A DNA stretch of 34,148 nt, from IMG/VR virus record IMGVR_UViG_3300032333_000308, positions 1 through 34,148 of that record; one strand, 5' to 3'. This document shows, piece after piece, positions 2,355-33,122 of the stretch (position 1 is its first letter; each line of letters opens with the position of its first letter). The stretch is from a virus. The position numbers were made by a program, and so were the translations under genes. Below the pieces are notes generated by a model. It saw nothing but the letters and a program-made list of their open reading frames with translations, was not told the origin of the DNA and made no database searches.

Positions 2355-2549
2355 ATGTCTGCAAATAGAAAAACATTATTAAAAATTAAATATTGGTCAC
2401 GGTCACGGTCATGGTCACAGTCAGGGTCAGGGTCAGGGTCACAGTCACGGTCATGGTCATGGTCAGGGTCATGGTCATGGTCAGGGTCAGGGTCACAGTC
2501 ACGGTCATGGTCAGGGTCACGGTCACGGTCATGGTCAGGGTCACGGTAA
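2355..2549 (+). CDS. Low-complexity (S-R/W/G)n repeat ORF, 64 aa
   Basis: The ATG abuts the upstream stop and has a GGAG site 11 nt before it. After 13 ordinary residues the rest is a dipeptide repeat in which every second residue is Ser and the other is Trp, Arg, Gly or Gln. It is read from a tandem hexanucleotide array. The same DNA in the +1 frame encodes an uninterrupted Gly-His/Gly-Gln repeat (open from 2383 to the TAA at 2554-2556) but has no start codon of its own. It is not certain which frame, if any, is the product. The protein would be intrinsically disordered. Confidence 0.4.
2395..2547. repeat. 25.5-unit tandem hexanucleotide array, GGTCAN
   Basis: There are 25 consecutive six-base units plus a half unit. 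The sixth base varies: C in 10 units, T in 7, G in 8, never A. Three units begin with A instead of G. A block of five units (2425-2454) is repeated exactly at 2479-2508, which shows growth by duplication or slippage. The period is a multiple of three, so unit gain or loss would keep any reading frame. Confidence 0.95.
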
Positions 2550-30383: not shown

Positions 30384-30482
30384 GTGGCTGCAAAAAAGGA
30401 AAAGCTTGAGGCTCAAGAAATTTGGGGCAAAGTTGGGGCAAATTCACTCAATTTCACGCCGCCATCTATCCAACATCATTGA
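30384..30482 (+). CDS. Possible 32-residue peptide
   Basis: A GTG 4 nt after AGGGGG opens a short frame (AAKKEKLEAQEIWGKVGANS region) to a TGA. It fills the otherwise empty gap between the SSB and initiator genes. TTGGGGCAAA occurs twice inside it (30422, 30433). Another GTG two bases earlier opens a longer but less protein-like frame. Weak. Confidence 0.3.
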   Translation: MAAKKEKLEAQEIWGKVGANSLNFTPPSIQHH

Positions 30483-30526
30483 ACACAAAAACATACGACA
30501 ACAAACGACATCTTCGGGGGAAGACT

Positions 30527-31246
30527 ATGGCAAAGAGATTTACAGATTCAGATAAGTGGAAAAGGCCGTTTTTTAACAAATTGTCTAATGAAGCCAAGCT
30601 CGCCTGGTTTTACCTTTTAGACAATTGTGACAGCTCAGGGGTCTGGCATTGCGACTATGGCCTGATGAGTTATCAGCTTAATTTTGAAGCATCTAAAGAG
30701 GACCTCATAAGGTGGTTCGGCGACAAGGTTTTCTTCATGGACGAGGATAAAATTTTCATCCAAAGCTTCGTAGAATTTCAGTATGGCGAACTAAATCCAG
30801 CAAATAATGCTCATAAACCAGTCATCAAGATTGCTCAAAAAATAAGCAAGATTAAGCCCCTCAAGAGCCCCTTATTAGGGGCCCAGGATAAGGATAAGGA
30901 TAAGGATAAGGATAAAGAAGAGAAAAATTCTTTTTCTTTTATAAGCCAATTAGAATTGGTTTATAAAGAATATCCAAATAAAGAAGGCAAATCCATTGGC
31001 CTAAAAAAAATAAGCAAAGAGATAAAAAGCGAAAATGATTTTTTGCTGTTTAAAAAGGCAGTCCAAAACTATGCCTTAAAAGTACGCACCGAAAAAACTG
31101 AGAAGAAATTCATCAAACACTTCTCCACGTTTTGTAACGAGGTGTGGCGAGATTACATCGACATTGAGCAGGAAAAAACCTCAAAGCAAAACACCGCCGA
31201 AGTGATCGCCCGCATGATTCGTGAAGGTCAAGGGGGGGCGTCATGA
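30527..31246 (+). CDS. Replication initiator/replisome organiser, 239 aa
   Basis: I start at ATG 30527 after GGGGGAAG; the ATG at 30422 lacks a site. Residues 1-75 (KRFTDSDKWKRPFFNKLSNE, then WFYLLDNCDSSGVWHCDY) are the winged-helix-type N-terminus found in many phage initiators. A linker of six Asp-Lys pairs lies near residue 125, then a C-terminal domain that may load the helicase. The linker DNA holds origin-like repeats, as in lambda O. It overlaps the primase gene (ATGA). Confidence 0.8.
   Translation: MAKRFTDSDKWKRPFFNKLSNEAKLAWFYLLDNCDSSGVWHCDYGLMSYQLNFEASKEDLIRWFGDKVFFMDEDKIFIQSFVEFQYGELNPANNAHKPVIKIAQKISKIKPLKSPLLGAQDKDKDKDKDKEEKNSFSFISQLELVYKEYPNKEGKSIGLKKISKEIKSENDFLLFKKAVQNYALKVRTEKTEKKFIKHFSTFCNEVWRDYIDIEQEKTSKQNTAEVIARMIREGQGGAS
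30867..30964. other. Candidate replication origin inside the initiator gene
   Basis: In under 100 bp there are a perfect hairpin GCCCCT-TATT-AGGGGC (30867-30882), five tandem GGATAA hexamers (30886-30915), an AT-rich stretch, and an 11-bp inverted repeat ATAAGCCAATT/AATTGGTTTAT (30941-30964, one G-T). Iterons plus AT-rich DNA inside an initiator gene is the lambda-type origin arrangement. The hexamers also encode Asp-Lys repeats, so part of the pattern may be a protein linker. Confidence 0.5.
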
Positions 31247-32130
31247 TTGAGGGTCGCCTTTTATTTCGCATGGACGATAGGGCCGACGCCCCAAAGCGCC
31301 CAACTCTTTTAAACTCAATCGACGAGGCTTTTTATTGGAATGAAAAGAAACAGGGGATCTTTTGGACGGTCAATTCGTTTAAGGGAAGCGAGCGGAAGAA
31401 CGATGAGTGTAAAAAAATTCTAGCCTGGGCCGTGGACATAGACCCTAGCGGGTCCGAAGAAAAGAGCGACTTGCTCGCCCGGATTGAGGCTGGCCCCAGA
31501 CCAACGTCCGTTATCGAAAGTGGCCGAGGGTATCACGTTTATTTCAACGCCGACAAATCAGCCAAACCAGAAAACTATAGCGCCATTGTTACCCAGATGA
31601 TTCGTTTCTATGGTGGGGATAAGAACGCTAAAGACATTGCGAGGCTTCTCAGACCACCAGGGTTTCTTCACTGGAAAGACCAGGGCAACCCCAAACCCGT
31701 GAAGCTGTTACCTGAGTATTTTTTCACAGACCACACGTTTTCAGAAAAAGAAATGCGCGTTCTGTTTCCTGAGCCCAAAAAGCCCGACACCAAAAAAGAA
31801 AAGCTTGAGCTTCAAAAAACCTTAAGCTTTCAGAAAGACACAAAACTCTTTGAGCGAATTTACTCGATGAACTGCAAAGAAGGGCTTGAGCGTCTATCGG
31901 GCCACCCAGCTGTTGGTATGGAAACGTTTACCTTTCGTAGGACGACCCATGGAAATTTTAATATTTCAGTTAATGGCAAAGGGTCTAGCTGTTGGATCGA
32001 TCAAAATGGACGTATTGGAAGTAGTGACGGGGGCGGCCCCACACTTTGGCAGTATGTGAACTGGTATCACAAGGATCATAAAAAAACATTTCAGTTTTTC
32101 AAGGAAGTATTCCCGGAGGTTTTTAAGTGA
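31243..32130 (+). CDS. Archaeo-eukaryotic-type primase with C-terminal zinc-like domain, 295 aa
   Basis: It should make RNA primers at the fork. The AEP catalytic core shows the metal-binding AVDID at residues 63-67 (Asp65, Asp67), SGRGYHVYF at 93-101 with the key His98, and KDIARLLRPPGFLHWK at 130-145. A separate C-terminal part (GKGSSCWIDQNGRIGSSDGG, then LWQYVNWYH) resembles the zinc-ribbon/CHC2-like ends of phage primases, though only one or two Cys remain, so zinc may be absent. The helicase gene overlaps its stop. Confidence 0.82.
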   Translation: MIEGRLLFRMDDRADAPKRPTLLNSIDEAFYWNEKKQGIFWTVNSFKGSERKNDECKKILAWAVDIDPSGSEEKSDLLARIEAGPRPTSVIESGRGYHVYFNADKSAKPENYSAIVTQMIRFYGGDKNAKDIARLLRPPGFLHWKDQGNPKPVKLLPEYFFTDHTFSEKEMRVLFPEPKKPDTKKEKLELQKTLSFQKDTKLFERIYSMNCKEGLERLSGHPAVGMETFTFRRTTHGNFNISVNGKGSSCWIDQNGRIGSSDGGGPTLWQYVNWYHKDHKKTFQFFKEVFPEVFK

Positions 32131-33122
32131 GTAGTTTTTTAAACATGAGAAATTTTGGATCAATGATCGATGAAAGAACTGCGGAGCGAGAAAAGAACGG
32201 CGAACACTTAATCCCCTTTGGCATAAGTTACCTTGACGATGCGCTTGAGGGAATCTTGCCTCACGACCTAGTGTTAATTACCGCACCCAGCGGAGTGGGG
32301 AAAACCGAGCTTGTTTCCCAAATTGCCCTTAACGCTGCAAAGAAAAATAAGCGAGTTTATTTCTTGGCACTTGAAACATACAAAGGGGAGGTTGAGGAGC
32401 GACTACTTTACAAGGCGTGTGTGCAGAAATACTACGCCGACCCAACGCGCGAAGCTGGTCGTCCCGATTACCTAAAGTGGGCTCACGGCTCACAAGAGCG
32501 GCTCCTTTCAAAATATTACAGCGAAGCAAAAGAAGAACTCGAGTTTTACGGAAAACGCATTTCAATTTTAGACGGTGGGGATGATTTTAAAATTGAGGAC
32601 TTTGAAAAAGTTTTTATACAAGCAGCGGTTGCCGACAAAGCGGATTTGGTGATTTTAGATCATTTGCACTACATGGAGGGCGATGACGAAAACGAAAATA
32701 GGTTTCACAAAAGGGCCACAAAGAAAATGCAAGAAATGATTAAGCGCTATGGCGTACCCATGCTACTAGTGGCCCATATTAGAAAGCGTGACCGAAAATT
32801 TAGAGTGGTTGCGCCCGGAATGGAAGACATTCACGGATCAAGCGATATTTTTAAAATGGCCAGCAAAATGATTTCGATTGGAAAGGCACCGGCACCTAAG
32901 GACTCAAAAAACCTTTTTCCGACGTATCTGCGAACAGCCAAGATTCGTTATGGCGGGGCGAGGGAGCAATACATTGGTGTGTGTACTTACGACATAACAA
33001 GAAACGATTACTTAGCTGCGTATGAAGTTGGAATGTTAAATTTTGAAGAAGATGGCGTTGAAATTTTATCCGCCATTGATCGGCCACACTGGTTTGTGGC
33101 AAGGGGGAATAATGGGCGGTAA
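32127..33122 (+). CDS. DnaB-type replicative helicase, 331 aa
   Basis: A RecA-fold ATPase with Walker A APSGVGKT at 53-60, Walker B LVILDHLHYM around Asp178, the downstream MLLVAHIRKRDRKF segment with sensor His217, and the GSSDIFKMA motif common to DnaB/gp4-type helicases. At 331 residues it keeps only the motor domain; the DnaB N-terminal domain is missing, as in several phage helicases partnered with a separate primase. The GTG start overlaps the primase stop (GTGA). Confidence 0.9.
   Translation: MSSFLNMRNFGSMIDERTAEREKNGEHLIPFGISYLDDALEGILPHDLVLITAPSGVGKTELVSQIALNAAKKNKRVYFLALETYKGEVEERLLYKACVQKYYADPTREAGRPDYLKWAHGSQERLLSKYYSEAKEELEFYGKRISILDGGDDFKIEDFEKVFIQAAVADKADLVILDHLHYMEGDDENENRFHKRATKKMQEMIKRYGVPMLLVAHIRKRDRKFRVVAPGMEDIHGSSDIFKMASKMISIGKAPAPKDSKNLFPTYLRTAKIRYGGAREQYIGVCTYDITRNDYLAAYEVGMLNFEEDGVEILSAIDRPHWFVARGNNGR

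What the first reader, a model, noticed from the sequence alone, without database searches (positions are those of the whole stretch)
30422..30964. Origin-like iterons, hairpin and AT-rich dyad inside the initiator gene
A perfect hairpin, five GGATAA repeats, an AT-rich stretch and an 11-bp dyad lie within 100 bp in the linker of the initiator gene, the lambda O/ori arrangement. A tandem TTGGGGCAAA pair lies just upstream of the gene (30422, 30433).
Basis: partly seen in the sequence, partly recalled or inferred. Interest (0 to 1): 0.5.

Follow-up and report, generated by a model that had tools for sequence, protein, structure and literature searches.

The report
Phage origin inside its initiator gene
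Short repeats inside a phage replication gene look like the start site that the gene's own protein recognises, and across many related phages one amino acid of that protein predicts which repeat is present.

Summary
The iterons are not the GGATAA hexamers. GGATAA (30885-30915) is a separate, adjacent tract. The TTGGGGCAAA pair at 30422 shares core and spacing. In relatives of this uncharacterised initiator (N-domain without a Pfam or PHROG match), an 11-bp period exceeds synonymous-codon shuffles in 29 of 69 clusters. Eleven is not a multiple of three, so the constraint is on DNA. Iteron sequence differs by lineage and follows residue 93: Asn with GGGGC (32 of 32), Cys/Ser with AGGGT (22 of 28), Val/Ile with CAGTT/AGNGTT (9 of 9). 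Proteins found by DNA patterns alone, under 70% identical to earlier ones, fit the rule: 12/12, 24/24, 2/2; one closer relative does not. Best explanation: a lambda-like in-gene origin bound by the N-domain. Binding, melting of the tract and helicase loading are inferred. The AT-rich stretch is not family-wide, and the long dyad is absent from the nearest relative.

The parts
30422..30431 (+). First copy of the leader pair, TTGGGGCAAA (GGGGC core at 30424); possible extra initiator site or autoregulatory operator
   Evidence: exact pair, expectation 0.01; direct GGGGC pairs 11 bp apart only here and in the gene array; 2 observed, 0.03 simulated. Not shown to be conserved.
30433..30442 (+). Second copy of the leader pair, TTGGGGCAAA (GGGGC core at 30435)
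30527..31246 (+). Initiator gene, 239 aa
   Evidence: Start shared with homologues; C-terminal part matches PHROG replication initiation families
30527..30871 (+). N-terminal domain, residues 1-115, predicted winged helix, proposed iteron reader
   Evidence: AlphaFold2 pLDDT 93-98 over residues 11-100 in ten-residue means; no PHROG match for residues 1-115, no Pfam match above cut-off
30803..30805 (+). Codon of Asn93, proposed specificity residue
   Evidence: outside the iteron array, so the two are not the same letters
30855..30861 (-). Iteron 1, AGCCCCT on the + strand (GGGGC core read on -)
30866..30872 (-).
30877..30882 (+). Iteron 3, AGGGGC, inverted, 11 bp on; right arm of the hairpin
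   Evidence: cores identical in L002 while both 4-nt spacers differ
30885..30915 (+). 6-bp purine-rich tract (AGGATA)5, coding Asp-Lys; proposed unwinding element
   Evidence: 6-bp period in 46 of 69 family clusters, mean 84% purine against 57% for the genes, read as several peptides
30916..30985 (.). AT-rich stretch (79% AT); in the window only, not a family feature
30938..30967 (.). Near-perfect 30-bp dyad, not conserved in L002; role unclear
30935..31243 (+). C-terminal helical domain (about residues 137-239), proposed link to helicase loading
   Evidence: PHROG 16304, 270 and 9474 matches over residues 120-225; helices, lower confidence
31243..32130 (+). RepB-type primase gene
   Evidence: Pfam PF16793, E 3.3e-08, above its cut-off
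32127..33122 (+). DnaB-like helicase gene
   Evidence: Pfam PF03796, E 2.1e-16; phrog_239 and phrog_19

Best explanation
The region is the phage's replication origin, embedded in the linker-coding part of the gene for its own initiator. The N-terminal domain, predicted to be a winged helix, binds 11-bp iterons that sit about one helical turn apart with the last copy inverted. The bound array opens the adjacent purine-rich 6-bp tract, and the C-terminal domain helps to place the phage's own DnaB-like helicase and RepB-like primase. Residue 93, in the loop before helix 97-105, helps to set which iteron is read: Asn for GGGGC, Cys/Ser for AGGGT, Val/Ile for CAGTT/AGNGTT. Shown here by sequence: the DNA-level repeat array, its 11-bp register, its lineage-specific sequence, and its covariation with residue 93. 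Inferred: binding, melting, helicase loading, and any autoregulation by the leader pair.
For: Array in the window: 0 of 100 shuffles reach it. L002, 45% identical as protein, keeps all 20 core bases while both 4-nt spacers and the peptide change. Lag 11 stands out against synonymous-codon shuffles: 22 of 65 clusters with the region ending before the tract (other lags 0-2 except lag 22 with 4), and 29 of 69 clusters found by the N-domain alone (lag 22: 13, others 0-7, control region 3). Three or more copies in register: 67 of 106 clusters against 9.4 expected. Residue 93 against iteron class in 114 genes: Asn 32 of 32 for GGGGC, Cys/Ser 22 of 28 for AGGGT, Val/Ile 9 of 9 for the third class; MCC 0.94, next position 0.56. 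Tree-based pairs: 12 of 13 (or 11 of 12) change together, none the opposite way, p 0.0005-0.001. Expectation written first, then DNA-only scans: AGGGT pattern 41 of 43 loci in the family, C37 S3 V1; GCCCC pattern (scan, run earlier) 22 of 43 newly fetched loci in the family, all Asn; third pattern 9 of 25 in the family, all Val. Neighbouring primase and helicase genes.
Against: No binding or replication data. The window alone is not significant on the lag-11 test (p 0.244). In 40 of 114 genes no array was detected, among them a subclade without linker tract (L014, L020, L091 and kin). With well-supported branches only, the pair test has 6 pairs and median p 0.06; for the third class alone 3 of 4 or 4 of 5 pairs, p 0.13-0.25. 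Exceptions to the rule: 6 of 28 AGGGT genes (N2, Q, F, V, T) and L370 (Val with AGGGT). GC skew is uninformative. DNA-level selection on the tract beyond the peptide is weak (lag 6: 7 of 69).
Confidence: 0.85

Rival explanations
1. The repeats are binding sites of the N-domain but act as operators: the protein controls its own operon by binding inside and upstream of its gene, and the true origin lies elsewhere.
For: The leader pair shares core and 11-bp spacing with the in-gene array. The covariation with residue 93 shows recognition, not replication.
Against: The conserved place is inside the gene, next to a 6-bp tract, as in lambda-type origins; leader copies were seen in only 2 of the 6 genes with a GCCCC core and enough upstream sequence (a weak test).
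Confidence: 0.08
2. Protein-level explanation: a low-complexity charged linker whose codons give repeats by slippage; the GCCCC copies are chance or codon bias.
For: The Asp-Lys peptide is common while its codons vary; the 6-bp period exceeds synonymous shuffles in only 7 of 69 clusters.
Against: An 11-bp period cannot come from a repeated peptide and exceeds synonymous-codon shuffles; DNA-only patterns recover the family and the expected residue. This rival may still hold for the 6-bp tract.
Confidence: 0.02
3. The array is a recombination or homing site that promotes exchange between different C-terminal parts; it is not read for replication.
For: C-terminal parts are mostly without detectable similarity: 101 of 1540 pairs homologous at E 1e-4. 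Some homologues (L195, L216, L240, L248, L253) have an HNH-like segment where the array would be (read by eye). In E. coli genomes the 3' half of the PhiR5_2 gene often matches without the 5' half at megablast sensitivity (rows sampled; one such locus fetched).
Against: A swap point needs neither an 11-bp phase nor a protein residue that tracks the repeat sequence.
Confidence: 0.03

Closest known systems
Bacteriophage lambda O protein and ori-lambda (also Stx phages P27 and 933W)
   Same: Initiator-binding iterons in the middle of the initiator gene, followed by an element where melting starts; replication genes downstream (PMC5043065 and PMC7466680, passages seen)
   Different: Lambda iterons are near-perfect 19-bp inverted repeats bound by O dimers, followed by a 40-bp AT-rich region; here 11-bp units, direct with an inverted last copy, followed by a purine-rich 6-bp tract; no Pfam match of the window protein above cut-off
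Iteron plasmids (pPS10, R6K, P1 type)
   Same: Repeated initiator sites in phase with the helix (PMC5043065, passages seen); winged-helix Rep domains such as 1hkq, 4pta, 5kbj appear among weak fold matches (Z 5.3-5.6)
   Different: Array lies inside the coding sequence and has an 11-bp period; the fold matches are of a generic level
DnaA-box/DnaA-trio basal unwinding system (BUS)
   Same: Double-strand binding sites next to a short repeated motif at which melting could start (PMC8287927, passages seen)
   Different: Six-base rather than three-base repeats and a phage initiator rather than DnaA; single-strand binding is only a hypothesis here
O-like initiators of E. coli, Klebsiella and Acinetobacter phages (PhiR5_2, ST846-OXA48phi9.2, Fraca, A3926.3)
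   Same: GGGGC units 11 bp apart and a 6-bp tract coding Gln-Glu/Gln-Asp in the linker, in 5 of 5 representatives of 80 loci
   Different: Different N-domain (phrog_1701/12196/25210); a second GGGGC pair lies in the N-domain coding region at about nt 180-222

Membership tests
Lambda O/ori-type origin | Initiator-binding repeats inside the initiator gene | tested here: met
   Repeats at 30855-30882 in the gene, DNA-level across the family; binding itself is inferred from covariation
Lambda O/ori-type origin | Iterons are about 19-bp inverted repeats, each bound by a dimer | tested here: not met
   Units are 11 bp, direct, with an inverted last copy
Lambda O/ori-type origin | Adjacent AT-rich melting region | tested here: inconclusive
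   Present in the window (79% AT), not a family feature; a 6-bp purine tract is there instead
Lambda O/ori-type origin | Sequence homology of the initiator to lambda O | tested here: inconclusive
   No Pfam match above cut-off, no PHROG match of residues 1-115; lambda O was not compared directly
Lambda O/ori-type origin | Initiator binding and origin melting in vitro | not testable with these tools
   Needs protein and DNA
Phage replication initiation proteins with PHROG 270/9474-type C-terminal domain | C-terminal domain homologous to these families | tested here: met
   phrog_270 E 1.8e-07, phrog_9474 E 5.2e-07, phrog_16304 (function unknown) E 8.5e-10
Iteron plasmid Rep (winged-helix) initiators | Rep-type winged-helix fold | tested here: inconclusive
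   VIA-align Z 5.3-5.6 to Rep domains among many other winged helices; no Foldseek match at E 0.001 or better
DnaA-trio/BUS | DnaA boxes with a trinucleotide repeat bound as single strand by DnaA | tested here: not met
   The period is 6; no scan for DnaA boxes was made; single-strand binding is not testable here

The most novel reading that the evidence does not exclude
A widespread, undescribed phage replicon module writes its origin into the gene of its own reader. One loop residue (93) acts as a specificity switch that has changed repeatedly together with the iterons. The downstream 6-bp purine tract is a single-strand ladder, usable in several reading frames, that guides melting, a hexamer counterpart of the DnaA-trio. 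A member's iteron class could then be predicted from its protein, and origins of metagenomic phages located by pattern.
Probability: 0.35. Interest if true: 0.8.

Novelty: new variant of a known kind. Interest (0 to 1): 0.64.

Why it matters
In-gene origins are known for lambdoid phages. The iteron-residue rule is a directly testable protein-DNA recognition rule and a way to find phage origins from sequence: the AGGGT pattern alone landed in this family at 41 of 43 loci.

Tried and rejected
GGATAA as the iteron: rejected, since codons vary in relatives and the 11-bp units carry the DNA-level signal. The 30-bp dyad as an origin element: unique in the window, not seen in L002. AT-rich stretch as a family feature: not supported. 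Leader copies as a family feature: one search picked the commonest 5-mer of each array region automatically and in AT-rich genes often picked a non-iteron word; of the six genes with a GCCCC core and upstream sequence, the window and L119 have copies upstream, L005, L030, L061 and L102 have none, so conservation is not shown. GC skew: uninformative. DNA-level selection on the tract by third-position periodicity: weak (lag 6, 7 of 69). Inverted pairs peaked at distances 9 and 11 (41 and 44 of 65; 11.1 and 12.2 expected), but every distance showed some excess, so only the peak is used. In one search period 12 scored as high as 11 (75 and 67 of 106) because that region holds the 6-bp tract, which stops before the tract, has lag 12 at 2 of 65. 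Distances from array to tract were searched from -6 nt on, so the lower bound is imposed. Foldseek gave no PDB match at E 0.001 or better; a profile search of PDB sequences gave nothing below E 0.1. The genome collection gave only 5 relatives.

The first version of the third-class DNA pattern was one base off: 6 loci, 0 in the family; the corrected one gave 25 loci, 9 in the family; 16 outside is about what a 17-base pattern could give by chance (my estimate, not computed). Of the GCCCC pattern's 44 loci, 21 have no N-domain match; some are long AAGCCCCTTCG arrays, and L142 and L156 lie in genes that look like the O-like type (L142 by search; L156 by eye). Of nine named phage genes examined, four (Stenotrophomonas TPWB-10, Tenacibaculum JQ, Lactococcus 50901, Citrobacter Chris1) showed no GGGGC array; no null was run for that call.

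The motif set of the third class (AGNGTT besides CAGTT) was widened after I had seen that such genes carry Val, so its 9 of 9 is not blind. The GGGGC and AGGGT classes were set, before the residue scan. Left out before counting: L002, L051, L259, L052, L053, L054, L105 (truncated, mis-started or distant), proteins under 140 aa, and L180 (not added). 'New' only means no exact 70-residue match to an earlier protein; removes near copies: at 85% identity Asn 15 of 15, Cys/Ser 24 of 25 (one Val), Val 3 of 3; at 70% 12 of 12, 24 of 24, 2 of 2. The pairing is a greedy script of mine.

Literature: ten searches of the held open-access library; in the listings I saw no paper that I recognised as describing this array or a DKDKDKDK linker in a phage initiator. 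Passages were seen of PMC5043065, PMC7466680 and PMC8287927; nothing else was opened, and subscription papers are not held. What I know of lactococcal and other lambdoid in-gene origins is recalled.

Full report
What is in the window. The window is a 34,148-base virus record. The gene of interest runs from ATG 30527 to 31246, 239 aa; the listed TTG start at 30422 is not where its homologues begin. Downstream lie a RepB-type primase gene and a DnaB-like helicase gene; upstream lie a Cas4-domain exonuclease gene and a gene with a weak match (E 0.0032) to a single-strand binding protein. The C-terminal part of the protein matches PHROG replication initiation families. Residues 1-115 match no PHROG, and the protein matches no Pfam model above its cut-off.

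The observation. The hairpin, the hexamer array, the AT-rich stretch and the TTGGGGCAAA pair are all there. The pattern occurs once in the window even with up to 3 mismatches allowed, and in 0 of 100 shuffles. The TTGGGGCAAA pair has the same GGGGC core at the same spacing; these two places are the only ones in the window with direct GGGGC pairs 11 bp apart (2 observed, 0.03 simulated).

DNA, not protein. The nearest relative found, L002, is 45% identical as protein. In the alignment all 20 core bases of the array are identical and both 4-base spacers differ; the encoded peptide changes from IKPLKSPLLGAQ to HEPLPSPCPGAQ. For the genes (160 genes; 69 clusters after proteins under 150 aa were dropped) I compared autocorrelation in codons 90-155 with shuffles that keep protein and codon usage. 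Lag 11 reached p<=0.01 in 29 of 69 and lag 22 in 13; every other lag reached 0-7; a control region gave 3 of 69 at lag 11. In the set with the window (134 genes, 65 clusters) and the region cut off before the tract, lag 11 reached it in 22 of 65, lag 22 in 4, others in 0-2. The window alone is not significant on this statistic (p 0.244), because it has only two direct copies. Three or more copies in register were found in 67 of 106 clusters against 9.4 expected. Since 11 is not a multiple of 3, a repeated peptide cannot produce this.

The iterons differ by lineage. After duplicate arrays were dropped, 61 of 106 clusters showed an array: 27 with GGGGC, 22 with AGGGT, 5 with CAGTT, 7 other. The common layout is direct copies, usually an inverted last copy, then the 6-bp tract, which begins within 12 nt of the last copy in 41 of 56 measured cases.

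The tract. The Asp-Lys peptide is common, but its codons vary, and a 6-bp period is also found as Gln-Gly (L111), Gln-Glu (L114), Gly-Lys (L222) and Gly-Ile (L214) peptides; L019 has a 5-bp version, AGGAC. A tract was found in 46 of 69 clusters, on average 84% purine on the coding strand against 57% for the genes. Periodicity beyond synonymous shuffles is seen at lag 6 in only 7 of 69, so selection on the tract as DNA is suggested, not shown.

A residue that tracks the iteron. In a scan of the N-domain against iteron class, window residue 93 (in L-N-P-A-N93-N-A-H) stood out. In 114 non-redundant genes, all 32 GGGGC genes have Asn; the 28 AGGGT genes have 19 Cys, 3 Ser and 6 others (N2, Q, F, V, T); the 9 CAGTT/AGNGTT genes have 8 Val and 1 Ile; 40 genes had no detected array and 5 an unclassed one. 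On a tree built without the loop columns the classes need 16 changes, against 28.8 when shuffled. Of 13 independent pairs (12 in one of three runs), all but one change residue and iteron together and none goes the opposite way, p 0.0005-0.001. With starred branches only, 6 pairs remain and median p is 0.06; for the third class alone the pairs are too few. Position 93 predicts the GGGGC class with MCC 0.94; the next-best position has 0.56.

A prediction written down first. I wrote the expected residues and then scanned viral contigs with DNA patterns alone; the GCCCC scan had been run earlier for another purpose, and its hits not yet tabulated served as held-out rows. AAGGGTA pattern: 43 loci, 41 in this family, C37 S3 V1, no Asn; of these 27 proteins were new, C23 S3 V1. 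GCCCC pattern: 43 newly fetched loci, 22 in the family, Asn in 22, 17 new. Third pattern, after an off-by-one error was corrected: 25 loci, 9 in the family, Val in 9, 5 new. Rows under 70% identical to every training row and to each other: Asn 12 of 12, Cys/Ser 24 of 24, Val 2 of 2; at 85%: 15 of 15, 24 of 25, 3 of 3.

Structure. AlphaFold2 gives ten-residue mean pLDDT 93-98 over residues 11-100 with a winged-helix-like order of elements, low confidence over 116-136, and a helical C-terminal part of moderate to low confidence. Foldseek found no PDB match at E 0.001 or better. VIA-align listed many winged helices at Z 5-7, among them plasmid Rep domains, which says little beyond the fold class. 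Residue 93 lies in the loop before helix 97-105.

Beyond the family. Pseudanabaena phage Pan5 has the N-domain, a similar array by eye and a DK tract. E. coli phage loci with a different, O-like N-domain carry GGGGC units 11 bp apart in the linker, followed by a Gln-Glu/Gln-Asp tract, in all 5 representatives of 80 loci; the Klebsiella, Escherichia and Acinetobacter phage genes fetched show GGGGC pairs too. Four other named phage genes show none. The genome collection gave 5 relatives: by title four Bacteroidota members (the rank of Chitinophaga and Saprospiraceae is recalled) and one PVC bacterium.

How it most likely works. By analogy with lambda (passages of PMC5043065 and PMC7466680): initiators bind the phased iterons, strain the DNA and open the adjacent tract, and the helicase is loaded with help from the C-domain. 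The binding step has indirect support from the covariation. Melting and loading are inferred. The leader pair could serve autoregulation; its conservation is not shown.

Verdict. This is a real, DNA-level element of an uncharacterised phage initiator family, best read as an in-gene origin of lambda kind with its own architecture.

Noticed in passing
window 2395-2547: A 153-bp array of 25 GGTCAN hexamers, in no listed ORF of 80 aa or more, just before a tRNA-like gene at 2613-2687 with an odd four-base anticodon call. Unexplained.
   Followed up: partly
window 30938-30967: Near-perfect 30-bp dyad, the only one of its kind in the window, not seen in L002.
   Followed up: partly
window 30579-30588 / 30617-30626: Perfect 10-bp inverted repeat AATTGTCTAA in the N-domain coding region.
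   Followed up: no
L195, L216, L240, L248, L253: Homologues in which the linker is replaced by what reads like an HNH endonuclease segment and no iteron array is seen (by eye).
   Followed up: no
L014, L020, L091 and close kin: A subclade with the N-domain but neither DK tract nor visible array; its origin may lie elsewhere.
   Followed up: partly
L273, L290, L318, L347, L350 (about nt 180-222 of the gene and the linker): O-like initiator genes with two separate clusters of GGGGC units, one in the N-domain coding region and one in the linker.
   Followed up: partly
L155, L163, L164 and others: Longer AAGCCCCTTCG-type arrays at places without an N-domain match.
   Followed up: no
L403, L409, L419: CAGTT-type arrays followed by other short repeats, such as ATAAAC in L419, at places not matched by the family profile; possibly further initiator families.
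   Followed up: no
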